Source: Xiphophorus maculatus
Lineage: Eukaryota; Chordata; Actinopteri; Cyprinodontiformes; Poeciliidae
Length of the DNA stretch: 64,000 nucleotides
Assembly: GCF_002775205.1 (NCBI RefSeq)
Contig: NC_036454.1
Location: forward strand, 9,630,882 to 9,694,881
Direction: 5' to 3'
The position numbers were made by a program, and so were the translations under genes. Every line of letters starts with the position of its first letter. Within the stretch, counting starts at the first letter, position 1. Of the stretch, positions 28,849-63,435 are shown piece after piece. A model generated the notes under the pieces. That model worked only from the letters and a program-made list of their open reading frames with translations. It was not told where the DNA came from and ran no database searches.

Positions 28849-30898
28849 TCACTCCTCTGGGTTTTTCCTTGGACCAGAACGACCTAAATTTCGACGAGCT
28901 AAGCTACCTAAGAAAACACCAGAAAGCAGATGTTAAGGTTTGTGCAAGCATAATTTTATCCAGACAAGATCAAATGAAAAAAAGACAGGACAGGTGCACA
29001 CACACCATTCAAATAGATTCACAATGGATTTATTTTTACTTCTAAATCCAAGAAAAATTAATTAGCAAATCATGTTCTTTGAACATGAAGAAAACAAACA
29101 GGAGGAGGACAAAGATGTAAAAATTTTGCCAAAGTAAAAACAAGACTGTACTCCACAGTCTAGAGAAACATGGTGGAATCTGGGAATGGTGCAAATATGC
29201 AATGTTCTTATTCTCTCCTCTCACCAACCCTAAAAACAGTCACCCAAAATATAAAAAAGCAATGTTAATTGCCTTTTTCAAAGACCATCCATTGGTGACA
29301 GAAGTGAATGAATCACACATGTAGTTGTTCTAAATGGGAGAGCTGAAACATCATAAATGCACATACTACATTAATCTTAGTTGGTTTATTATGTCTGAAA
29401 ACAAGACCACTCTCCTTTATGAGGTTGGCTAAAGGTCAAAGTAGCTAAGCATCTAATGGCAGTGCTACGATTCCTCTGATTTAACTGGGATTTTACTAGG
29501 ATAGTTCAGGTAATTTTAAGTAAAATCTGTAAAGCAGAAATATCTGTAATAGTTATATCAAATCCCAAGGATTTTTTTCTGCTGTCTGACTCTGGTAGAG
29601 AGGATTTGGCTAATTCTTTCTTACTTTTTGTCCTATGTTTACATCTTTATCAACATAAGAAAAAGTAGCTGTTAGTGGATAAGATAACATACATTGGGCT
29701 GGGAACGGAATACCTATACAACCAAAAGGGAAAAACTAAATGTCTACAAATAAATGTCTCCCAAAAATAGCTAAACAAAATAACAAATGTAGGCATATCT
29801 TATGTAAAATTAGCAATGCAATTAGAATAAATGCGTGGCACACAGGAAGATACTGGAAACGCAAATACCTGCTTGGGGACTTAGAATTACATTCTGTTGC
29901 TTTCTTCTCCTTTCTTCTTGTGCAGATAAGCCCTAAAAAAAAACACCACAATATTACACAGCAGATCATAAGAGAAAATCACTATGATTTTGGATTTAGT
30001 TCAAGAAAACAAACCTGTTTATCCTTCTCTCTCAGACTTTTAAGGTGGCTTAATGAGGAGGACGGAAGGTTCTCCATTTTCACATTACCTGCAAAATGAC
30101 AAACTAAGATAAAGGGTGCAAGACACATCTCCAATTTATTCATCAATATGTTGTATAGATCTCTAATTGTTAAGAACTTCAACAAAACCAATATTTTAAT
30201 AAACTATGATGTTTGAAGAAAATAAAGAAGCTAATATATTCAAAGACCCATGAAAAATGTCAATATAAAGTCATCTTGTCTAATGCATAAAAGCCTACAA
30301 TTGATCCAACTTTTGGCTGCATTTACTTTCAGATCTCACACAATGAGCAAGTCGGTTTGTCTAACTATGAGGTTTGACATCTGGGACTGTCTTCATCCTA
30401 AAAGAAGATACTTCTCTTTTTTCCCCCTGTTCCATCACACTTTACATAGGACACTTTACATAGGACACTTTACATAGGACACTTTACATAGGACTCCTTA
30501 CTTTCTTTCATTGTCATTTCCAAAGACACCGTTCTCTGAGAACAATTTTCCAAAATACTTGGAGTGAAACATCTAGTTTGAAACTCCATGTGATACTCCA
30601 AAACCTCTATAGAAATTACCAAAATTAAATACGTTTTCAGGTTATAGACTGAACTCATAATAGTAGTGTAAGAGTACTCCAGTTTTTCATTTAATATAGC
30701 AGAAAACCATGTATTCATTTGTCTTATTACACGAAGCATGGTGGTCACTTCAGAGAGTTTTCTTTCTATATTGAAGCTCAAAAAACAGTCTAATTCAGTG
30801 ATCTTCTCTCTATCTTTGGTGCAAAGCTTCAGTTGCATTAAAATAAATATCCTCCCTTACTGTGGAAAGGCATACACTCTTGTCTGACTAACGCTCAC
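28849..30898 (-). CDS. Unrecognised multi-exon gene candidate (5' end uncertain)
   Basis: I do not recognise the family. Four exons chain in phase with canonical sites: 30502-30776 (or starting at the ATG at 30838), 30015-30088, 29869-29932 and 28849-28907 with a stop. They encode, in part, KLSEVTTMLRVIRQMNTWFS, NLPSSSLSHLKSLREKDKQ, GLSAQEERRRKQQNVILSPQ and a basic tail SLARRNLGRSGPRKNPEE. From ATG 30838 the model is 534 nt (177 aa) with no broken phase. An alternative 5' exon at 30861-30898 (VSVSQTRVYAFP) joins through an 84-bp intron (30777-30860) to 30776 in frame, so the gene may begin further upstream; a lysine-rich open block near 31090-31135 could be another exon. Predicted character: helical N-terminal part, then a charged, probably disordered tail. 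The 30015 donor (GTTTGT) is weak. Coding status rests on phase agreement only. Confidence 0.5.
30437..30492. repeat. 14-bp tandem repeat, four copies
   Basis: Four perfect head-to-tail copies of ACACTTTACATAGG. On the minus strand they begin about 10 nt after the splice donor of the 30502-30776 exon of the unrecognised gene, and each copy reads TGTAAAGT, itself donor-like. Confidence 0.95.
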
Positions 30899-44634: not shown

Positions 44635-44700
44635 GTTGCCTGAGCAACGGAAGAAAGCCGAGACCCAAGAGCGGGGACTTCCCCGGGAAAAGTGACGTCA
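44635..44700 (+). promoter_or_regulatory. ccno promoter: RFX X-box, kappaB-like site and CRE
   Basis: A full symmetrical X-box, GTTGCC-TG-AGCAAC, lies at 44635-44648, fitting the RFX consensus (two half sites, 2-nt spacer). GGGGACTTCC at 44673-44682 fits the NF-kappaB consensus, and TGACGTCA at 44693-44700 is a perfect CRE. All sit 85-150 bp before the ccno ATG, in the GC-rich stretch just upstream. RFX2/RFX3 are the known activators of motile-cilium genes; binding here is inferred. Confidence 0.75.
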
Positions 44701-44784
44701 CTAAGCGGCACCGCTCTCCATGGAGCATCGAGCACGGTGAAAAGTTTATACACAAAAGCCCTGAAGACTGACGCACAGGTAGAC

Positions 44785-47287
44785 ATGGTGTCATTTAGAA
44801 AGGACGATTCAGTTTGCGATACATTTTGTAAAAGAAGACTCACGCCGCCTCGGCAGACTGCTCGGCACAGAAAGCAGAGACTTGTGTCCAAACTGGGTGA
44901 CTCTGGATTCGAGGACGATCTGGTTTCCTCTCCCATTCCGCCCCGTTGTCGGATGAATGCATTCCAACTGGAGTCAGAAGAACCTGAGTCCGCTGATGGA
45001 CAGCTGTCCCACTGGTACCTTCAGTACGGAGACGTCGGTTTCAGGATCCAGAGGGAGAAAGAGTCGCAGTTTCATCCCTGCCAAAGCCTGGCACGTCAAC
45101 CACAAGTAGGCCAACAGAAATATTTACAGTAGATGACTGAGAATCAAAAATACATAACTGACTTATTCTGACTTGACTGAACACATGCAGTAATATGCAA
45201 ACTACAATTTGACATCATCTTTTAGTTTTTGTCAAGTCAATTTCTCGAGACGCTCACAGAATATGTACTGCTGCAAAAGCAGTAGCGTCTATGCTTCAAA
45301 GTCAACATGGATTTCCTATGTTTTGTCTTTAGATTTTAATTTCACTTTTGATACCCAAACAGAAATGTAAATGTTCCAAATAAAACTTATAGCTAAAACA
45401 TCTCATAAACACAGTGTTTCCCAGTTTTAAGGAATTGTAAAATCTTTGCCATTTTTCTAACTTGAAGTCAAGAGACTATTTTTTAAAGCTTTTGGATTAC
45501 AATGCTCCCCAATGAGAGCCATTATACACAAATGGAGACAACATGGAAGAGTGGTAACCTTTAGGCCTGGCACGATCACAAATTTTGCTGGACGATAAAT
45601 TGTTCCAGAAGATATTGCAATAAATGATAATATTGTTGTTTTGAGACAATTTTTAAGTAAAATTGTGGTAATGGCAAAATAATAATTCAAGAGCACAGTC
45701 TAAGAGATCAGTAAACTTTGGATTATAATGACCATTTAACACTGGAAGACATTTTAAATATCCAAAATAAATAAACAAAACAACAAATACAATTAACTTT
45801 GAAGTCTTTGTAAACAATATTGTCCTTCAAAATAAGGGCTAGTGAGACCAAAACACCAAACATAAGACTTTTATCATCCAGTTTTTGGAAAGAGAGAGAA
45901 AAGAAGAGATAAACGATAAATCATGTCAATGGAAATTATGGAGTTTGTTTTAATTTATCATGCAATTAATTGATTTATTGATTGTTGTGACAGGTCTAGT
46001 AATCTTCCATATCAGAAAGACTGCATAAAGCTACATCTGGGTAATTTGGTTGTGTGATGCTCTTGGGTGGACATGGTCCATTAGAATAATTTGTCAAAAT
46101 TATTCTGAAGGAATCAAAACTTCTGCTCTCTGCATAAAAGAGTGATCTGAAATTCCTGCTGAGCAATTACCCATTTGTATTTATTGCAAACTCTTAATGG
46201 CATTTAACGCTGATAAGAGTGGTACAATCAATTATTAGATTTAAAAGGCATTAATGCTTTGTAATCTACGGAATCAGATTGACTTAGATTATTTTTTCCC
46301 TGAAACATGTGAAAAATAAACAACAAGAAATCCATGAGGGGCAAATACTTTTTCATACAGTATGAGTTGGATCAGTTTTCTGATGATTCTTTACTCTGCT
46401 TGCAGCTGACTGCAGATGCACGCTGTAAGCTGGTGAGCTGGCTCATCCCCGTCCATAAACACTTCCGTCTGTCCTTCGAGTGCTGCTGCCTGACAGTGAA
46501 CATCATGGACAGGTTCCTGGCGTCCACTCCAGTGGCCACAGACTGCTTCCAGCTCTTGGGTGTCACTGCACTCCTATTAGCCAGTAAACAGGTCAGTCTT
46601 CAGTGAAATCTTTCAGAGGCAGATCCCTCTGACTCCATTCAAATATCCCCCATCTCTTTTTTGTCTCTATAGGTGGAGGTGCGCTCTCCATCGGTCAGCT
46701 ATCTCTTGTCTCTGTGCTGTGATGCTTTCACCAAGGAGCAGTTCTGCAACCTGGAGTGCCTCGTCCTGCTCCGCCTTAACTTTCGCCTCGCCTCGCCCAC
46801 CCTGGCCTTCTTCCTGGATTACTTCAGCAATCTCGTCAAGGCTGCCCAGTTTGTGATTGAGAACAACAGCAGTGACGGGTTTTCAGGAGTGAGTTCAGAG
46901 ATAGCAAAGATCAGAAAGTGCAGTGAGCTTGCACAAAAAGTATGTGAGTTGACTCTAGCAGACTATGCTTTCAATAAATACCCACCATCTCTGATTGCTT
47001 GCTGTGCCCTGAGACTTGCATGTGAATTACTGAGAGCCGAACACTGCTTTGCAGAGCAGGCAGTCGTAGAGTTGGTGGAAAACCCATGGGAATGTTTCAG
47101 AGGAGACCAATGTATGCAGCCGGTTTGTATCCAGTCATGTGAAAGCTCTACCTTTAGTCCTGGGCAGTGTTTGACAGTGGAGGCGACTCCAGATCAGGAC
47201 TGCAGTCTGGTGCAGGAATGCAAAGACAACCTAAAGATGTTGGTGTCACTGAATCAGGAGACTCTAAAAGTGATGCCATTAAAATAA
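44785..47287 (+). CDS. ccno: Cyclin O (3 exons, 373 aa)
   Basis: Atypical cyclin needed for mass centriole production in multiciliated cells. Exons 44785-45105, 46406-46591 and 46673-47287 join in phase (1122 nt). ATG 44785 gives [18 protein letters not shown]; the frame is also open upstream, but only via a non-ATG codon, and a short uORF (ATG at about 44719) lies in the leader. The N-terminus is basic and carries an acidic DSGFEDDL motif. The cyclin box spans roughly residues 75-210: [10 protein letters not shown], then [23 protein letters not shown] (the hallmark MDRFL) and [13 protein letters not shown] with the conserved K and E. The second cyclin fold continues in exon 3 ([17 protein letters not shown]). 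The neighbour mcidas is 1.8 kb downstream on the same strand, the vertebrate arrangement. AATAAA signals at 47283-47289 (overlapping the stop) and 47554-47559. Intron 1 holds a hAT MITE. Confidence 0.96.
45562..45998. mobile_element. hAT-type MITE in ccno intron 1
   Basis: A 437-bp non-coding element with imperfect inverted ends (TAGGCCTGGCAC at the left; GTGACAGGTCTA at the right) and 8-bp flanks GTAACCTT (45554-45561) and GTAATCTT (45999-46006) that differ at one base. The terminal TAGG and 8-bp duplication indicate the hAT superfamily. Confidence 0.82.
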
Positions 47288-49099: not shown

Positions 49100-51521
49100 A
49101 TGATGGAGACGCAAAAAGAAGGGAACGCTTTCGGTGCTGCTTGGCCCAACAGACTGGGACAGCGTAGGGGGAAAGCAATTGTAAGCAAAGTTCTCTCTCT
49201 TAAGAAAAATGTGCAAGTGAATGAAAATTTTGATGACAGGCGCTATTCCTGCAGGATAAATTCCCGGTTCCAAGAAGCAGCAGCCCTGTCAGTGTTTATG
49301 TTGAATTTCCCCGCATTGCTTGCAAAGGTAAACAACGAATACTGTCACTGAACTCCAAATATTTAGGTTGTTTTTTACACTATCGTTATCTTTTAGGTTT
49401 TGCAACAATAGAATGGAGGGATTTGGAGGACTGTACATCTGCTGTGGAACAGGAGAGAAACTCATTTGTCTCTCAGGTGAGAATAAAATCATTTTACACA
49501 ATAAAATCACAGGAATTTATTTGATCTGGTTACAATACTTGCTGACTCTTGGTTTAGTTTTACAATTGATACAAAACCATCACCAATAGTTTATAGGCAA
49601 GGCAGTCTGAGTCCCCCTCTGTTAATGTTTGACTTTGGGAATCCTGCCCAAATGGGTTTGTAGTTTACACATGACAGGCAGGCTACTAAACACTAGCACC
49701 TCACCTGAAGTTTCTTTCCACACACTGACCCTCTGCACAACATTACACATCTGAAATGACCACCAAGATTCACTCCTGGAGCTCTACTTTGACTTGGTGG
49801 GATTATCAGGAAAGTTGTCATGGTTTCTTTGTGGTTTTAGTTACCAAAACACATTATGTTAATAATCAGCTTTAGTTCTTCACAGGCAAACGAGTCTGAT
49901 ATAGACGAGCAGCATTATGGAGATTATGCAATGGATTTCATCGCAGGTGAGGGAACTAAGTTCTGGCAATGGGATGACTTCTGCTCTAGTCATCCTTCCT
50001 CCAAACTCCTGTTCATTATTTTCTTGGTGATCTTTCTCTTCTCTCAGATTCCACTGCTGCAGGAGATAGCTGTCTGTCTGAACTTCTCCCATTTCAGGGA
50101 TGTGTTATACCCCCTCTGACTCCTCAGAGGGATTTCTCTCCAGAGGACAGCATGGTTCAATCCTCCACAGAAAAAACAGAGGATGGAGTTTCATGGAGGA
50201 GTGTTGCAGAGTGTCAGGGGAGGGCTCATGGAGACTCAATGGCCATCAACAAACAGGTAAAACATAATCTTAGGATTATTTGTGTCCCTGCAGATATGAC
50301 TCAACTTTATCTGATGCAAATGACAAAGCAAAATTTGTGTCCATCATATCATTTAGTGGGGCAAAATATCATATAGTGGGGCAAATTGTTGAATAAATAT
50401 TTCAACAATCTATAAAAAAAATAAAGCTAATGCTTTGGGCCAGCTCTGAATACTGGTTGTTCCAAAGACAAGTGAATCAGGTCAACATTTAAAATTGCTG
50501 CATACAGTTTTAAATATTATGTTTTTCCTGTATGTTGAGAAACATGCAAGAAAACACAGCAGAGAGGAGCCCCAAAAGCAGACAGCATAACTGAAAATAT
50601 CTCGTAACTTCTGTCTGCAGCTCCAGGAGAGTCTTCACAAGCGACAACAAGAACTGAACTCCCTCCAGGAAAGAAACCTGCACCTCAAGCAACTGGCGAG
50701 TCGAGCAAAACACCTCGCCTCAGTCCTTGAAGTGAGTGAAAAAGAAGCTCAAAATCCATCTCTTTATTTTTAGGAACCAGGGTCGTTTTTAGGGGTCATT
50801 TTCTTCCCCCGGCATTTCCAATGCAGGAACCAACAACGAATCTGATAAATGCAGGTAAAAATCTGTCCTAAAAACAATCCTAGTATGGAGGAAAGACCTT
50901 TTGGATTGACCCTGAGGAAGAGGAGGAGCTTTATAAGAGTCTCAAACAGTTCATATTAGTTGAATAGTTACAGCATTTTGTCTCAGTCATGTTTATATAG
51001 AATGTAAAGTGTTATAGAAAAAAGAAAAACGCATATTTATATAGTTGATGAGTGTGAACTTATGATTATTTTGATTCTTTTAGAGACTCATGACAGTCAG
51101 AGATTCTCATGCTGGAGAACCGGAGGTACCAAGCTCTGAAAACACCTCTCTGAGTCCCTGCAAGAGGCAACGCCTGGATGAAGGCTATGAAACAGAGTCC
51201 TCTGACTCTGTGGAGGACATGCTGAGGGATATCAGCACACGCTGCAACGCTGTGCTGCTCAACAATGCTGCAGGATCACCACAGGAGTCCGAGACGATAC
51301 GCATGTATGGCACATTCTCAAGTTTGCAGATGTCCACTCTTAACAACAGCATCACTGTGGATGTTGATGCACCAGAGGGTGCAGAAGATGTCTCATCATT
51401 CAGGACCTCCGTCAGAGAACACGGCACCATTCGGACTCATGGGTTTCCTCATGGGCATGCGTTTACATCAAGGATCCTGCAGGGGGGGTACCGTTTCCGT
51501 TGGGTTCCCAACCACAGCTGA
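49100..51521 (+). CDS. mcidas: Multicilin (7 exons, 350 aa)
   Basis: Geminin-family coactivator that binds E2F4/5-DP1 and launches the multiciliated-cell programme. Exons: 49100-49180, 49255-49327, 49397-49476, 49886-49946, 50048-50256, 50621-50731 and 51084-51521 (1053 nt, phases consistent). Two ATGs stand in tandem at 49100 and 49103. Intron 1 is only 74 bp; without removing it the frame ends at 49351 and cannot join the later exons. The N-terminus has the family FGAAWPNR signature. Exon 5 carries CVIPPLTPQRDFSPED and the geminin-like VSWRSVAECQ, followed by the coiled coil in exon 6 (LQESLHKRQQELNSLQERN, residues about 169-207). Exon 7 has the KRQRLDEGYETESSDSVED segment and the C-terminal TIRT domain (GTIRTHGFPHGHAF, ending RWVPNHS) that contacts E2F. 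AATAAA at 51699-51704 and 51815-51820. Confidence 0.95.
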
Positions 51522-54079: not shown

Positions 54080-54180
54080 ATGGCAGAGCAGAAGACGCAG
54101 CTTCCCGCTCTGCTGTCCGCCCTGCAGGAGTATTTAGGAGGGGAGTTGGAGCAGGAGAGACCGCAGGTTCACCGAGACAG
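54080..54180 (+). CDS. Candidate first coding exon of the mir-449 host (cdc20b position)
   Basis: ATG in a near-ideal context (GCCGCCAATGG) opens 33 codons (MAEQKTQLPALLSALQEYLG, then a Glu-rich stretch ending HRDR) that run to a consensus donor CAG/GTATGA at 54180. Position and strand fit exon 1 of cdc20b: downstream of mcidas on the same strand, with the mir-449 hairpins in the following intron and gpx8 nested antisense beyond. The vertebrate CDC20B N-terminus is poorly conserved, so I cannot confirm identity by sequence. Since the downstream WD40 exons look broken, this exon may now serve only a non-coding primary transcript. A GAGGATG... block after a possible acceptor near 54540 does not continue the frame. 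Confidence 0.35.
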
Positions 54181-54364: not shown

Positions 54365-54649
54365 ACATGCAAACTTTCAACAAATCACAGCCCCTACCTG
54401 GTTCTTTAGCATTAGACACTTTTCAATTATTTTCTTATTAGCTTTCAGTCTTGTTAGACCTTCTTACTGATCAGCTTTGCAGAAACTCGTTTTGTTTTGA
54501 ATTGTGAGCTCAATTGTTTAATTGTTCTTCTTTATTAGGAGGATGCTTTAATGAGGATAATACCTTCTCCCTTCAAGGTAAGATGAAAAGAATAAATCTC
54601 TTTATTCAAATTAAATCAGAATCTCTCTGGTTTCTAGATTACAGATCTG

Positions 54650-54716: not shown

Positions 54717-54808
54717 CAAGGTAACCTTTAGAAATACCTGCTGCTGTAGCTGGGCTGCAAAACGTCTCAGGTTGTGTTTTGTGCCGAAGACCTTTGAGTT
54801 GTGACTGG

Positions 54809-54871
54809 TATGGAGGCAGTGTAATGTTAGCTGACGAGTTCTCTTTCAGCTCACAGCGCTCTGCTACCATA
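54809..54871 (+). ncRNA. mir449: mir-449/mir-34 family microRNA hairpin (copy 1)
   Basis: The 5' arm AGGCAGTGTAATGTTAGCTG (from 54814) has the exact miR-34/449 seed GGCAGTG and the family body ...GTTAGCTG. The 3' arm (CAGCTCACAGCGCTCTGCTA, within 54848-54871) pairs with it over 26 positions with a few mismatches around an 11-nt loop. In vertebrates the mir-449 cluster sits in a cdc20b intron next to mcidas and ccno and promotes multiciliogenesis by repressing Notch and cell-cycle targets; the location here fits. Confidence 0.88.
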
Positions 54872-54959
54872 ACGGTTATATTTACGCTCAACTTGTAAAT
54901 GCTGGAGGACTTTTCATATAAATATCTTTAGGTAAAGTATCTCTGGTGCTTTTCAGCTG

Positions 54960-55028
54960 GTTTGTAGGCAGTGTCTCGTTAGCTGGTTGGGTTGTCAGGT
55001 GCCAGCTTACCTGCTGCTGCCCTCAAAC
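54960..55028 (+). ncRNA. mir449: mir-449/mir-34 family microRNA hairpin (copy 2)
   Basis: The 5' arm TAGGCAGTGTCTCGTTAGCT (from 54965), again with the GGCAGTG seed, pairs with CCAGCTTACCTGCTGCTGCC on the 3' arm; the outer stem GTTTG/CAAAC closes perfectly. It is 150 bp after copy 1 on the same strand, so both would come from one primary transcript. Confidence 0.88.
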
Positions 55029-56073
55029 TGTCTGAGATATCCGCAGCAGCTTGACGTTGTGCAATGCTCAATGAATACAGAGAAATCATTGCAATGTAAA
55101 TAAAGAACACCACCATGAATGTGAAGGTTCATCCTCTTTCAGTTATTGGTTTCTAGGTGCTAAGAATTATGGTGTACAATACTCTAAGCATATTTATATA
55201 CCTATACTGAAATGCAAAACCACACAGCACTCATTATTAATAAACATAAAGCTAATGTAAAAGTTGTGTGTAGAAAAACTAAGTTGTTGCTTCCACCTCG
55301 TTTGCAAAGTAAACATCAGCTGTAGCAATGTTCACAAAAAGTAGCTTCATCTCACTCTAGATGCTAAAGGGCCTGGCTTGTTTGCTAGGAGAATGTATAA
55401 TGAAAATGGTACCAAGACTTAATATAGCACCTGAACCATAAGACTTATGAAAAAATGAGAGATGTTTGCCTGTATTGCACACTATCACCTTTAGAGAAAA
55501 CAACAATTCATCCACCCACTAATCTGTGCATGGTGGGGCTTTTTATCAGCAGAGATGTTTAAGCATGAGAACATGCAAACTCCATGTAGAAAAGCCGTAG
55601 GTGAAGATTTGAACAGTGGTTGGAGACGCAACATTTACCACGGTTACAAGGGCATCTCCATGCAGCCCGTTGGAGAAAACAACTGATGATCTTGAAGTAC
55701 ATTATTTTATTGTTGGAAGGATGAGATACAGTTAAGAGGCTCAAATCAGACACTAAAAGGTGAAAAGACAGGCTTCATCTTAAAAACAAGATTGTAAACT
55801 TTAGAAAATTACTTTAAGAAGCACAATGTAGAGAGATTTTTTTTTATTTAAAAACCCAACACTGAGGGCTCAACAACCTTTTATCTTCAGTGGTATCTTC
55901 AATGTCTGATAGAATGGCCAACACTCAAATAAAACCATACCAACACTTCTTTCTGGAGAAACAGATCTCTCTCACATGCCCTCTGCTGACACGTCAGTCA
56001 TTTCAGGCTTTACCAGCACGGCACCATCTGAGATAAAGTGGCAAAATGTCCCATATCTCCCAAGCATTTGCCA
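55029..56073. other. Spacer between mir-449 and gpx8
   Basis: AT-rich sequence that includes the gpx8 3' UTR on the minus strand; AATAAA signals on that strand at 55843-55848 and 55706-55711. No other feature seen. Confidence 0.6.
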
Positions 56074-58058
56074 TTATAGCTCCCCACGTTTCCTTATGAT
56101 GATTTCTCGCACCAGTGCTGTGACCTCTTTTCGGACGCTCTCCATGGATTCGTCTGTTTTCCAGAACCGGATCACTTTTCCTTCCTGATTCACGAGAAAC
56201 TTCCAAAAATTCCACTTTGGTATTTTCTGCACAGAATCTAAAAAAAAAAAAAAAAAAAAAAGACTAGTTTGAGTGGATTATTTTTTTTTAAATTATAATG
56301 ATATCCCAAAACAACAATACAACAGCAAACAAAAATTTTCAACATAGACATTTCTTTACTATAAACAAATACAATTTCCTAACAATGTAACTATGCAAAA
56401 ACAAGAGCATTTACATATTTGTAAGTAGTTTTTTTTTTTTTTTACATCTCTTTAAAAGTGTGTTGAGCTTTTCCGGTAAAACAATACACAGATGTTTACT
56501 GAGAACCTTTGAGAACTCCTCATTGATGTGAATGCCATTCATTTAATACTGGATCATCATGATTTCATCTACTTTGTGCAATATGCCATTCTATTACCAC
56601 TGGCAGCAAAAAAGATCCTGATGATCCTTTCAATGCCGTGTTTAATAGTTTGTACAGTGCTAACTAGATATGAAAGCCTAATCTTAGCTTCTCCAAACAT
56701 TGCCTTTTGTTATTGTTTGGACATAGCTGGTTCTCCTGCCACCATAAATATTTTCTTTGAAAAACATGTGGATAGCTAGTAGTTGAAACAGAGTTTTATT
56801 TCTTGCTTGCTTTCTTCTTTCTGGTGTTCTAACAGGACAATGATCTCAAACAACAATCAAAACTAATTCTAGCAGGTTTATAATAGCCTTCTTGGATTTT
56901 CTTCCTATAAACATTGACTTCAATTTCAGCCCTAAAGACTTCACTTAAGAGCCTGGGTCTCAGCCAGCAAACAAGTCAATAAAATTGACTTGCAGTGGTA
57001 AAATCTTCCAGCCAGAATTTTGCTGGAAGATTGTTGATGTCTAGAAAACAGTTCAACTAACATTTATCCAAATATTAGTGCTGTTGTCTAAATCTTTCCA
57101 AATCATTTTTATGTTTTAAAAATTACCCATCATAAGGAAAAATTAACCAGCCACTGTCTTTTCTGGGTAAAACTCGACCAAGAACCTTCAGAACCCTTTA
57201 ATTATTTAAATATCTGACTCGATGTATACATTGATTTTATCCTGCACAGGTACCCTTTCGATCCTGTGTGGGTTAGAGAAAAGATCCACACTAAATTCAA
57301 GCGTAATATTAATTATATAACCATTACACCCTGAAAAAAACGGACAAGTAATCAATTAAAGTCAGCAACTGCTGTCCGAGATTGTAAATATGCAACAGGA
57401 CATTATATGTTTTCCTGCCGACCTGTGAGGAACCTGAAGGCAGGCTCAGCCTCCGTGCCCAGGATTTTGATCTTGCTGAAGAAGGGGAACGTCACGCCGT
57501 ATGTGGACTTGGCGAAGGCCTCGATGTCGCGGCTCAACCCGCGCTCCGTGTCCCCGAACTGGCCGCAGGGGAAGGCCAGGACGTTGAAGTGAGACGTGCC
57601 CAGCTCCCGGTGCAGCTCCTGCAGAGACTTGTAGCTCGCCTCCGTGTGCTGGCAGTGACTCGCCACGTTTACAACCAGCGATGCCTGAACAGGACAAAAA
57701 CCATGGAGCAATCATTATAATAAAACTCTGCACAGAATGTAATGACAAGAAAGTAGGAAATAAAGAAGAAAAAAGTAATCTCTGTTTCCAAATGAAGATT
57801 TGCAGAGATTTAATGCCAAACTAAAGACGCCTGGTGATGATGTGGACGTACTTTTCCTCGGTACTTCTCCAGGGATACCGTCCTCCCCTTTGCGTCTTTC
57901 ACCTCAAACGAATAAAAGTCCTTCTGTTTTCTGGGCTTCACCAGGTGCGTCTGCAGGAGGAACAAACACCCCACACCGACTGTCATGCTCACCAGGACCC
58001 TAAGCCTTTTTATTCTGGCTTTGGAGGACTTGGTGGGATAACCTCCGAGAGCCTCCAT
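56074..58058 (-). CDS. gpx8: Glutathione peroxidase 8 (3 exons, 210 aa)
   Basis: ER-membrane thiol peroxidase of the CysGPX type that removes H2O2 made during oxidative folding, using protein disulfide isomerases as electron donors. Exons 57852-58058, 57423-57684 and 56074-56237 join in phase (633 nt; the human protein is about the same size). A short basic cytosolic tail (ARIKRLR) precedes a single membrane anchor at about residues 22-40 ([15 protein letters not shown]), then a lumenal thioredoxin-fold domain: [15 protein letters not shown] with peroxidatic Cys80 (cysteine in place of selenocysteine), LAFPCGQFG with the catalytic Gln, and KWNFWKFLV with the catalytic Trp and Asn. The C-terminus KRGEL is a KDEL-like retrieval signal. 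The exon 2 donor (GTCGGC) is weak. It lies antisense between the mir-449 hairpins and the cdc20b remnants, i.e. nested as in mammals. Confidence 0.95.
56242..56261. repeat. Poly-A run in gpx8 intron 2
   Basis: About 20 consecutive A residues on the plus strand, forming the pyrimidine tract of the exon 3 acceptor on the minus strand. Confidence 0.8.
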
Positions 58059-61000
58059 CTTGGAGGGGGGGAGTTAGGAGTCCTGCAGAAAAGTCTGGGC
58101 TGGGCGGACTCGAGGATGAAAGTAAAATGAAGTTAACGGGGTTAAAAAAATCCCTACAAACAGGAAACTCATTGCCTTAAAAAAAAACAACAAAAAACAA
58201 CAGTTTCTAAAGGCTGTGCTAAATTCAAAAATCACGGTTCTTAAACATTTCATACCATGTTATACCAGGTCAAAAGTTATGAAGAAATTTCTAATAAAAT
58301 TTCTTGGGAGACTTTTTAAATTCGCAGAGACACGAACATTTTATTGTGAAATTCTTAAGAGGAAACAACTATCCAAAAGTTGATTCTAGGAATTGTTGTC
58401 AGCTTTGGGGTGACTATTACTTTTGCCAAAGTATAAAATTTATGAAATGTACAACTTCTCATGCCCAATGTTTTTTTATTCAAAGGGCCACAACGAAGCC
58501 GACGAAGTCGCATACAAACGCTTCAAGAGGCGGAGCATCCATGGGAGCAGCAGCGGAGGTCCAGCTGCTAGTACACCGCTGCCCTTTGGGGGGCGCTGTG
58601 ACTCTCTCTTTGAGTTTTACACCTTCTGTCGGAGGCTGGAGCTCGAATTGTCACGGAGAAACCACATGCAAGAACACAATGTCCTGCAATAAGACATGCG
58701 AGGTGCTGCAGAAACCTCTGTAACACCTTCTGATAAAGATAATAAATAATCTTAAATGTGATCAGGAAACTAAGATGTTACCAAAATTAGGATTAAAATT
58801 CCAGTTTGTGAAAATAGTATATCAAAAAATAAACATATTTATTATACTCACTTACCCATGACAAGCTTGCAAACTGTTCTTCTTATTCATTGGGTTGCAA
58901 GATATATTTAATTATTTCACTGACATTAAAGACACATACATGTTCATGTTTTATTTAACATTATTCAAATATACTATGGAAATGCAAACAAACTAATAAA
59001 AAACATCAACATAAATGTGCACTGTAGAGAAAATGAAGGTTTCATTGCACTGTGCAATAAAGATGAAATAAATGTGTTGTGCATCTTGCAGGGTCCTTGC
59101 GATGCTGTCTTTTTACCCGCATTGAGGGTACCACTGAACACACACCACTGCACATTCGTGTTGCAATAACACATTTGCACAGCTGTTAAAAACCTCGTCT
59201 TGACATATGGTTTGAGTGTAGTTTCACTTCAGTTCATTTTGGTTTATAGGAATATGAACAGTTTCCCATCTCTTACAAGCACATAAAGTTGGTAAATTGC
59301 TGTATTGATTACGCGTTTCTGTGGCATTTGAAGCTGAGTCATCTCTGGTGGGCAACTGCAGAAGACATTTGTGACTTTAAACTCACCACAGCAACGCTCT
59401 GTGAGATCCAGAAGATGGACGAAAGCAGAAATGCCAACAAATAAGGTTGGTAATAAAGATGTGCAAAAATGGCTTTTTCAGAGGTCTTTGACTCTCGAAT
59501 TGAGTAAAAAAAAAACAAAAGTGGTGTACAAGTTTAAATCTTTCATGGTGGCAAATGTTCAAGAATTTCTTTTAATGTTGTCAGCAGCTTGTACTTTCAC
59601 TGTGCCAGGTAAAAATATAATTACTGCCCCACAGTGCCTATAATAAAGTATTCACATCCTTGAATGATTTTACAAATCAATCATCATCATCAACATAATT
59701 AGTTTCTTTTGACAAAGAAATTTACAAATAAACCCCCTTCATATCAAAGTGAAAATGGATGTCTACAAAATAATGGCAAATAAATAAAAAATGTGTCACA
59801 TAGATTAATTGACTGCATAAATATTCCCCTGCTTCAATTCAGTACTTAGTATATGCATGTTTGGTAGCAATCACAGAACAGAATCTGTGGATAGCTCTCA
59901 ATTTTTACTCCATTCTTTCTTGGCAAACTGTTCAAGCTCTGAAAGGTTGTGCGAGGATTCGCTGTGAACAGCCATTTTCAAATCCAGCTACAAACTCTCT
60001 ATGGGATTTGACTGGGCCACCCCAGAACAGCTACATTGTTGTACCATATGTGAGTCTTTAGCTGGAGGCTTCTAGCTTTACAATAAAGAAGCTGTAGTTC
60101 TCTTGCTGCATTCATTTTACCTTCTGCCTTTACCAGCTTTGAGACCCTGTTGCAGTGAAGCATCCCCACAACATGACTCTGCCACCACCTTGCTTCACAG
60201 GAAGGATGGTGTCTGCCAAAAATAGTGCCTTGACTGATGGGCAGAAAGTTAAATTTTGGACTAATCATAACTTTCTCCAACATGCCTTTTGATGTCAGCG
60301 ATTTTCTCCCATATAGCTTTGACTGACAACAGTTGTATGCAGAGTCTCTCTCATCTCAGCTGCTGGAGCTTGTAACTGCGGAGTCACTGATGGCTTCCAT
60401 CACTAGTCTCTTTGTGCAGTCATTCATGATGTGAGAAAAGGCTGATGAGATTTACACACATGCATATTCCGCTGAATTTTGCATCTGCATTATGTAGCTT
60501 TTATAAAAATATGTTTTTTACAGTACAAATGTGACAGTATAATATGAGACGGATCATTTGTGAAAGATTCTAATAAATTCTTAAAGCCCCAAATTGTTAC
60601 CTTTAAATCTATGATACATATGTAAACTCCTCTGTAGACGTGTTTTTGTACAGTTTTTATTCAGACTTGGCCAGATCTGCTCAAATTAGCACCTCTGTGC
60701 TGCTCAATACCTAAAATCATCTTGTCTAGTCAAGTTATGAAATCTACAAACTCTTGCAGATTTCTTACTTAAAGCAACAGAAGCCGCTGGGGCCTGTGTT
60801 TGTCTTTAGATCGACTTGCATTCTTATATTTATGTAGTTCCTAATCTCAAACATTACATAAAAGTCTTCTACAAGTCTTATATAGAAATAAAGAACCTTT
60901 GCACAAATCACAGTACATTTGAATAACATTTTGATAAGAAAAACACAGGTCTGCATGCATCATGCAATACTTTAAATTATAATAAATCAAATCATGTATG

Positions 61001-62199: not shown

Positions 62200-63435
62200 T
62201 CCAACTCTTCTTCTATCTTTGACCTTTCGGACACCTATCTTCTCGACTGTAGTTGTGATGGAATTGCTGCTGCACCGGGTTTTGCCATTTATCTTTGGAT
62301 ATCTCTGGAACACTTTCAACCTAGTCCAGATTAAAGTCAATCTGTCTGAGCTGGAGTTGGGATGGTAGAGGTATCGGCACAGGGAACAGATGATGAGAGA
62401 TACAGGTAAGCTAAAAGCTATAAAACCATTTCACAAAAATGGTGGGGGTCTCTATGAGGGGAAATTTGAGACATATTTGTACTAGAGTGACAGTTTGTGG
62501 TGTCTCACTGTTTCTGTTTTACGTTTAGTTGGGGATGTTGACCACAAGTAGAGCATGTGGCGTGTTCAGTCACACTTGTCTCTAGTGTCAGCGCTTTCCT
62601 GGAAACAGCAGTTATTCAGCAGGTGCTGGATGGTCATCTCTCATCAACAGAAAATTAGTTATTTAAAATTCTTACCTTGTTATTTTACGACTGGATTAGT
62701 GGTTTTTGATTTTTGTCCTGTGACTGTAGGCATTAGGATGGTGACCATGGCTGAGAAAAGGGATTGCTACAAGAGGAAGGCAGAAAGATGAACAGCTAAG
62801 AATCTGGGAGACAATCTGGATCTTGTTTGACTTCCTTCAATGCAAATTCACAGGTGGTGATGACTTAAAGTCCATTAGATTGTATTATATTCATTACGAT
62901 TTACTGTGAATAAACCCTTCATGATTTACTCCCTATAAGTCTACAGATCTGTTGTCTCAGATGGAATGGAAAGGAAGATGTTTGGTCTCAGGGCTTCCTC
63001 ATGAATTTATCACCTGTTGGAGATGGATGCCCCCCTCCCTCAGATGAATCCACCAGCTCACATGTCAGAAGATTAACGAAACAAATTAAATGTTCCACTT
63101 TTGTAGCAGTCACAAATTTCTGTTTAACACATTTTCACCACCCTGACAGGAATGCTTGTATTATATCATCGTACTGCTCAGTAATATAGCACATCTGTCA
63201 TTTCCCACTGAGATAGTTCATTTTTGAGACGGTTTTCACTGACTCATTATCGCTGGGGGTCTTCAGTGAAAACAAAACTATTAATGAGTCATAGCAGTCA
63301 TATGGGAGGTCTCAGTTTCCTGGCTCATGCAGTGGAAACATGGCGTTGGGGAGGGGGGATAACCTCTGAGAACATCCTTTTTGAAACCTCACGAAGGCGA
63401 GGAGCTGTTGATCAAACCTTGGGGGTCCTCTTGGT
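62200..63435 (+). pseudogene. cdc20b: Decayed cdc20b WD40 exons
   Basis: Several blocks in the right order and strand resemble the CDC20-family beta-propeller. Block a (62200-62405, flanked by TTTTAG and GTAAGC) reads LSDTYLLDCSCDGIAAAPGF then AIYLW, like the family's YYLN..LDWS...VAIALG..VYLW; it meets a stop at 62332-62334, continues one frame over as LSWSWDGRGIGTGN (family SVSW..G..LA.GT) and meets two TGA codons at 62391-62396. Block b (from 62529) has one base missing in the expected LWDV, a TAG at 62549-62551, then QSHLSLVSALSW, a near-exact family match. Weaker blocks: 62730-62815 (ending LRIW), 63018-63050 (DGCPPPSD versus DWCPWQSD) and about 63380-63430. Multiple frame breaks and stops argue for a unitary pseudogene. 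Sequencing error could explain one lesion but not all. N-terminal exons were not found apart from the candidate at 54080. Confidence 0.6.

What the first reader, a model, noticed from the sequence alone, without database searches (positions are those of the whole stretch)
62200..63435. cdc20b appears to be a unitary pseudogene while its nested microRNAs and gpx8 survive
Seen: WD40-like blocks in collinear order on the plus strand, with an in-frame stop at 62332, double TGA at 62391-62396, a lost base at about 62531 and TAG at 62549, yet conserved stretches such as QSHLSLVSALSW. Known: in other vertebrates CDC20B hosts mir-449 and has GPX8 nested antisense. Inference: this lineage lost the protein, leaving the locus as a microRNA host. 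It would show the host protein is dispensable for multiciliation and that selection keeps only the hairpins.
Basis: partly seen in the sequence, partly recalled or inferred. Interest (0 to 1): 0.75.

Follow-up and report, generated by a model that had tools for sequence, protein, structure and literature searches.

The report
Decayed cdc20b gene around surviving microRNAs
In this fish the gene for Cdc20b, a protein that frogs and mice need to build cells with many cilia, has rotted into a relic, while two small regulatory RNAs beside it and a gene nested within it look intact.

Summary
At 62.2-62.9 kb lie decayed, collinear WD40 exons of a CDC20-family gene; a frameshift-tolerant alignment beats 100 of 100 shuffled queries and 62 of 62 other tiles. 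The host genome (704 Mb) holds an intact cdc20 and two intact fzr1 genes; no intact cdc20b was found, so 'unitary pseudogene' is well supported. gpx8 is intact. Two mir-449 hairpins are the best of 57 scored candidates genome-wide, though below Rfam's cut-off. One CEP63-family locus passes its cut-off, in line with the report that ray-finned fish have no Deup1. CDC20B loss is published for Otomorpha fish, where mir-449 went too; an intronic microRNA outliving its host is known from medaka miR-499. New here: cdc20b decayed in place with mir-449 and the locus kept. Transcription and selection were not tested.

The parts
62227..62405 (+). cdc20b relic exon A (TYLLDCSC..YLW..EIQ); TAA 62332, a frame change just after it, TGA-TGA 62391-62396; donor CAG|GTAAGC kept
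   Evidence: start approximate
62529..62622 (+). cdc20b relic exon B (LWDVDHK*SMWRVQSHLSLVSALSWKQQLFS); one base lost near 62531, TAG 62549; acceptor TTTACGTTTAG kept
   Evidence: end inferred from the intron position in the intact cdc20 of the same genome
62623..62729 (+). 107 bases where the exon GSRSGHIHHHDVR..AVK (about 79 codons in the intact cdc20) should lie: exon missing
   Evidence: 49 of 100 and 19 of 100 shuffles as good; exon layout of cdc20
62730..62853 (+). cdc20b relic exon D (ALGW*PWLRKGIATRGRQKDEQLRIWET/SGSCLTSFNANSQ); TGA 62742, frame change near 62815; acceptor and donor kept
62947..63026 (+). possible cdc20b relic exon E (ICCLRWNGKEDVWSQGF..), with a frame change
   Evidence: weak: 2 to 3 of 100 shuffles as good, and the longer alignments pass it by; for it speak position and acceptor CTACAG
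54800..54880 (+). mir-449 hairpin 1
   Evidence: RF00711 38.0 bits, E 1.1e-5, gathering score 60.4; fold z -5.65, 0 of 200 shuffles as stable
54952..55036 (+). mir-449 hairpin 2
   Evidence: RF00711 49.7 bits, E 3.4e-9, gathering score 60.4; fold z -1.97, 10 of 200 shuffles as stable
54080..54180 (+). possible first exon of the old cdc20b transcript (ATG, donor CAG|GTATGA)
   Evidence: sequence; likeness to the recalled human N-terminus not significant (12 of 100 shuffles as good)
56074..58058 (-). gpx8, three coding exons (58058-57852, 57684-57423, 56237-56074), 210 codons, intact; nested between the hairpins and the relic exons
   Evidence: (shortest of four splice models, the one that fits GPX8)
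49841..51521 (+). mcidas exons; coiled coil in the frame 50591-50773 matches multicilin
   Evidence: 4bry, E 1.2e-7; other exons by eye, no Pfam match
44644..47284 (+). ccno-like cyclin exons
   Evidence: 46673-47284: Pfam Cyclin_C E 2e-8; 44644-45129 no match, included by position; name by synteny

Best explanation
The locus is the ancestral cdc20b gene of a teleost, decayed in place into a unitary pseudogene. Shown: collinear relic exons with five in-frame stops, at least three frame changes and a missing exon; splice borders where the intact cdc20 of this genome has them; synteny; no intact copy found elsewhere; intact gpx8 inside it and two mir-449 hairpins near its 5' end. Inferred: ray-finned fish have no Deup1, so the Cdc20b protein, which frees centrioles from deuterosomes in mouse and frog, lost its job, while transcription from the old Mcidas/E2F-driven promoter is kept because it delivers pri-miR-449. 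A protein gene with intronic microRNAs has become a microRNA host. The confidence given is for the pseudogene; for continued hosting see the novel case.
For: Alignment against shuffles and tiles (own cdc20 as query 138 against at most 82 in 100 shuffles); stops and splice sites; last exon best of 144 tiles, 53 against 40, and 0 of 100 shuffles; exon D piece matches CDC20 over 42 of 42 positions, E 3.2e-8; three intact CDC20-family genes and no fourth; lectin and trypsin-family (granzyme-like) genes downstream; gpx8 control with 0 stops and 0 frameshifts, 105 of 166 identical; mir-449 in the genome; one CEP63-family locus over the cut-off; papers by passages.
Against: No transcript, small-RNA or selection evidence. 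Both hairpins score below Rfam's gathering score and hairpin 2 folds only modestly better than shuffles. N-terminal exons were not identified. The relic is no closer to CDC20B than to its paralogues (identical: CDC20 71 of 199, CDC20B 72 of 195, FZR1 69 of 197; scores 132, 121, 99), so the name rests on synteny and on the last exon, which fits CDC20B (53, 0 of 100 shuffles) and not CDC20 (36, 28 of 100). The aligner puts 1 or 2 frameshifts, but 0 stops, into intact genes when the query is a distant paralogue, so single frame changes count for less than the stops. On 54-64 kb CDC20 ran on into implausible upstream pieces.
Confidence: 0.8

Rival explanations
1. The protein is lost and the hairpins are merely not yet decayed; the locus is no longer used and miR-449 is also on its way out.
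For: Both hairpins are below the Rfam gathering score; mir-449 is lost with CDC20B in Otomorpha (PMC8470418 passages); no expression data.
Against: The hairpins keep seed, arms and fold while exons of the same gene carry many lesions; hairpin 1 is more stable than 200 of 200 shuffles; they are the two best of 57 scored candidates in the genome.
Confidence: 0.12
2. The relic is a decayed second copy and an intact cdc20b lies elsewhere, in a gap, in a withheld stretch, or too divergent for the search.
For: The genome search scores only its best candidates, the assembly may have gaps, and the relic itself was not among its rows.
Against: Exons of paralogues with 36 to 54% identity to the CDC20B query were found at three loci on C6; the relic sits in the ancestral slot beside gpx8, mcidas and granzyme-like genes, with introns kept, so it is not a retrocopy.
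Confidence: 0.05
3. Assembly or read errors in a functional gene.
For: None found; reads were not available.
Against: Five stops, at least three frame changes and a missing exon lie in under 1 kb, while gpx8 next door shows none by the same method, nor do cdc20 and the two fzr1 genes against their own best query.
Confidence: 0.02

Closest known systems
CDC20B / mir-449 locus of tetrapods (multiciliary locus MCIDAS-CCNO-CDC20B; PMC6220262 passages)
   Same: Gene neighbours, mir-449 near the 5' end (second intron of CDC20B in mammals), gpx8 nested on the other strand (recalled), granzymes beyond (recalled).
   Different: Here the protein gene is dead.
CDC20B loss in Otomorpha fish such as zebrafish (PMC8470418 passages)
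   Same: Ray-finned fish without CDC20B.
   Different: There mir-449 is lost as well and mcidas and ccno lie on different chromosomes; here the locus and mir-449 remain and the relic can still be read.
miR-499 without its host MYH14 in medaka (PMC3716903, abstract)
   Same: An intronic microRNA outlives its protein-coding host in a teleost.
   Different: There the host is completely absent and miR-499 expression was shown; here relic exons remain and expression is untested.
Zebrafish hoxDb cluster reduced to a single microRNA (Woltering and Durston 2006; seen only as a reference title in PMC2080641)
   Same: Protein genes gone, microRNA kept.
   Different: A duplicated gene cluster, not a single host gene.

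Membership tests
cdc20b orthologue (decayed) | CDC20-type WD40 sequence in collinear exons | tested here: met
   0 of 100 shuffles as good
cdc20b orthologue (decayed) | Synteny with gpx8, mcidas, ccno and granzymes | tested here: met
   (Pfam says trypsin; granzyme is my reading); MCIDAS-CCNO-CDC20B from PMC6220262 and PMC8470418, the rest of the human order recalled
cdc20b orthologue (decayed) | Closer to CDC20B than to CDC20 and FZR1 | tested here: inconclusive
   CDC20 132, CDC20B 121, FZR1 99; last exon 53 for CDC20B, 36 for CDC20
unitary pseudogene | Disabling lesions | tested here: met
   five stops; frame changes and missing exon
unitary pseudogene | Not a retrocopy (introns kept) | tested here: met
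   borders VQ|LWD, |ALGW and SQ|ICC as in the intact cdc20
unitary pseudogene | No intact copy in the genome | tested here: met
   cdc20 and two fzr1 genes only; limited by assembly and by the sensitivity of the search
unitary pseudogene | Lesions shared within a lineage | not testable with these tools
   no related genome held
mir-449 family | Match to the Rfam model at its gathering score | tested here: not met
   49.7 and 38.0 bits against 60.4; E 3.4e-9 and 1.1e-5; nothing at gathering score
mir-449 family | Hairpin, seed and genomic position | tested here: met
   seed compared by eye with the Rfam consensus and recalled miR-449a
mir-449 family | Mature small RNA | not testable with these tools
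   no small-RNA data
GPX8 | Intact glutathione peroxidase frame with GPX8 as best match | tested here: met
   (3kij, E 7.3e-73)

The most novel reading that the evidence does not exclude
In a teleost lineage outside Otomorpha, Cdc20b protein was lost while its locus stayed on as a dedicated non-coding host that still delivers miR-449 under Mcidas/E2F control; with Deup1 absent too, this natural knockout separates the microRNA role of the multiciliary locus from its deuterosome role.
Probability: 0.5. Interest if true: 0.65.

Novelty: new member of a known kind. Interest (0 to 1): 0.52.

Why it matters
From knockdowns in mouse and frog CDC20B is called essential for multiciliogenesis, and the nesting of miR-449 in it crucial (PMC6220262, passages). 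A fish that lost the protein but kept the hairpins, mcidas, a ccno-like gene and the gene order is a natural experiment that pulls the two products apart, and it fits the idea that Cdc20b serves deuterosomes, whose core protein Deup1 ray-finned fish are reported to lack.

Tried and rejected
Single open frames against PDB and Pfam: no CDC20 or WD40 match; an AMP-binding hit (E 0.0017, below its cut-off) was taken as chance. WD40 block at 63.03-64.0 kb: rejected. N-terminal exons of cdc20b: not detected in 53.9-56.0 and 58.05-62.26 kb (12 of 100 for the first 60 residues, 50 of 100, 4 of 40 shuffles as good); 56.0-58.05 kb, where gpx8 lies, was not scanned for them. Exon B piece alone: CDC20 at E 1.6 or worse, below two repeat-built designed proteins and a lectin (11 of 11 rows). 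Exon D piece, whose frame was set with the CDC20 alignment: WDR5 and FBXW7 rank above CDC20 by summed repeats, but among the 60 of 126 rows shown only CDC20-family chains match over all 42 positions. In the longer alignments exon E is passed by (CDC20B) or replaced by implausible pieces (own cdc20). The bacterial promoter scan says nothing about a fish. Inverted repeats at the likely transposon remnant: two short pairs only. Papers: one search (five terms) found 0. No paper on cdc20b decay with mir-449 kept was seen in the listings (30 of 14,618 rows, none with cdc20b; 30 of 392; 19 of 19; 12 of 92; 10 of 52; 2 of 2); the library is open-licence only. Passages of PMC10689204, PMC11545745 and PMC4159003 added nothing on cdc20b loss.

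Full report
What is there. The window is C12:9630882-9694881 of a 704-Mb genome in 101 contigs; that it is a teleost is my inference from gene content and compactness. From left to right it holds ccno-like cyclin exons (44.6-47.3 kb, Cyclin_C E 2e-8), mcidas exons (49.8-51.5 kb; coiled coil matches multicilin 4bry at E 1.2e-7), two mir-449 hairpins (54.80-54.88 and 54.95-55.04 kb), gpx8 on the minus strand (56.07-58.06 kb) and the region of the finding. Beyond the window follow a C-type lectin exon and trypsin-family exons that I read as granzyme-like. MCIDAS-CCNO-CDC20B is the published multiciliary locus (PMC6220262 and PMC8470418, passages); the places of GPX8 and the granzymes in human are recalled.

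The relic. An aligner that allows frameshifts and introns places CDC20B and CDC20 on 62.2-63.03 kb with introns at 62406-62528 and 62854-62946. In 62.0-64.0 kb CDC20 scores 132 (shuffled query: mean 54.1, maximum 86, 0 of 100 as good) and CDC20B 121 (maximum 93, 0 of 100); the best of 62 other tiles are 73 and 71. Over 54-64 kb CDC20 reached 157 by running into implausible upstream pieces from 54871 on, so long alignments need care. The stops are TAA 62332, TGA 62391, TGA 62394, TAG 62549 and TGA 62742, the last making W*PW out of WCPW. A base is missing near 62531; the frame changes after 62332 and near 62815. In the intact cdc20 of the same genome introns fall at VQ|LWD, ILS|GSR, AVK|ALAW and SQ|VSS; the relic keeps VQ|LWD, the border before ALGW, and SQ|ICC, but the exon GSRSG..AVK is gone: 107 bases separate exon B from exon D. 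Exon E is weak (2 to 3 of 100 shuffles as good) and is passed by. The last repeat was not found in 63.03-64.0 kb but at 64205-64285 in the contiguous DNA: LHWAINPVNAHIFSEGANQSFHLWDLY against [27 protein letters not shown], score 53, 0 of 100 shuffles, best of 144 tiles (next 40); with CDC20 as query the same place scores 36, which 28 of 100 shuffles reach. Kept introns speak against a retrocopy.

Is it unitary? With the recalled CDC20B as query the host genome gives 28 matches at E up to 10, the best eleven at three loci on C6; CDC20 gives 75, led by the same loci and other WD40 proteins. The three are cdc20 (199 of 289 identical to human CDC20) and two fzr1 genes (274 of 289 and 252 of 288 to the recalled FZR1), each without stops or frameshifts against its own best query; against more distant paralogues the aligner adds up to 2 frameshifts but no stop. 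No fourth gene appears. The relic itself was not among the rows, so a very divergent copy could be missed; an intact gene should score like these paralogues.

What survives. gpx8 reads as 210 codons over three exons (the shortest of four splice models), best PDB match GPX8 (3kij, E 7.3e-73); the same aligner finds 0 stops, 0 frameshifts and 105 of 166 identical residues. The hairpins match Rfam mir-449 at 49.7 and 38.0 bits (E 3.4e-9 and 1.1e-5 over 16.5 kb), under the gathering score of 60.4; they fold with z -5.65 and -1.97 (0 and 10 of 200 shuffles as stable). In the genome search 57 of 77,463 first-look candidates were scored; four match at E up to 1, these two being the best, the others at C1 and C17 (31.9 and 27.6 bits), perhaps mir-34; two of the 14 control genomes, both bacterial, also gave matches below the cut-off, so the weak ones mean little. 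In mammals mir-449 lies in the second intron of CDC20B (PMC6220262); here a possible first exon (54080-54180) and, by eye, a possible second (54539-54577) precede the hairpins, without significant likeness to the human N-terminus.

How it probably came about. CDC20B in mouse and frog frees centrioles from deuterosomes (PMC6220262, passages). Ray-finned fish are reported to have no Deup1 (PMC4926731, passage), and in this genome one locus, on C9, passes the cut-off for the CEP63 family (that the model would also catch Deup1 is recalled). A protein that serves deuterosomes would have little left to do, while the microRNAs, which act on Notch and the cell cycle (PMC8470418, passage), are kept. 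The loss of the protein frame is shown; continued use of the locus as a microRNA host is inferred.

Known or new. Otomorpha lack CDC20B and mir-449 and have the locus broken up, while certain Euteleosteomorpha keep it (PMC8470418, passages). Medaka keeps and expresses miR-499 without MYH14 (PMC3716903, abstract). So the loss and the principle are both known; cdc20b decayed in place with mir-449, gpx8, mcidas and a ccno-like gene kept was not met in my searches. I file it as a new member of a known kind.

Noticed in passing
L011:1187-1267 (window numbering 64205-64285): Relic of the last cdc20b exon, its frame open to a later stop, just outside the window.
   Followed up: yes
59630-60450: Sequence that resembles a DNA-transposon remnant common in fish (recalled), between gpx8 and the relic exons; only two short inverted-repeat pairs found.
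   Followed up: partly
L012 and L013 (C12:9703801-9723600): Four trypsin-family (granzyme-like) exons in a row downstream, suggesting a tandem family.
   Followed up: partly
G000:C9:25668768-25670859: The only locus over the cut-off for the CEP63 family in the genome; stops inside two matches probably come from reading across introns.
   Followed up: partly
L015 and L016 (G000:C6:12052000-12058500 and 4493000-4500500): Two intact fzr1 genes, perhaps from the teleost genome duplication.
   Followed up: partly
30437-30501: Tandem repeat of ACACTTTACATAGG, about four copies.
   Followed up: no
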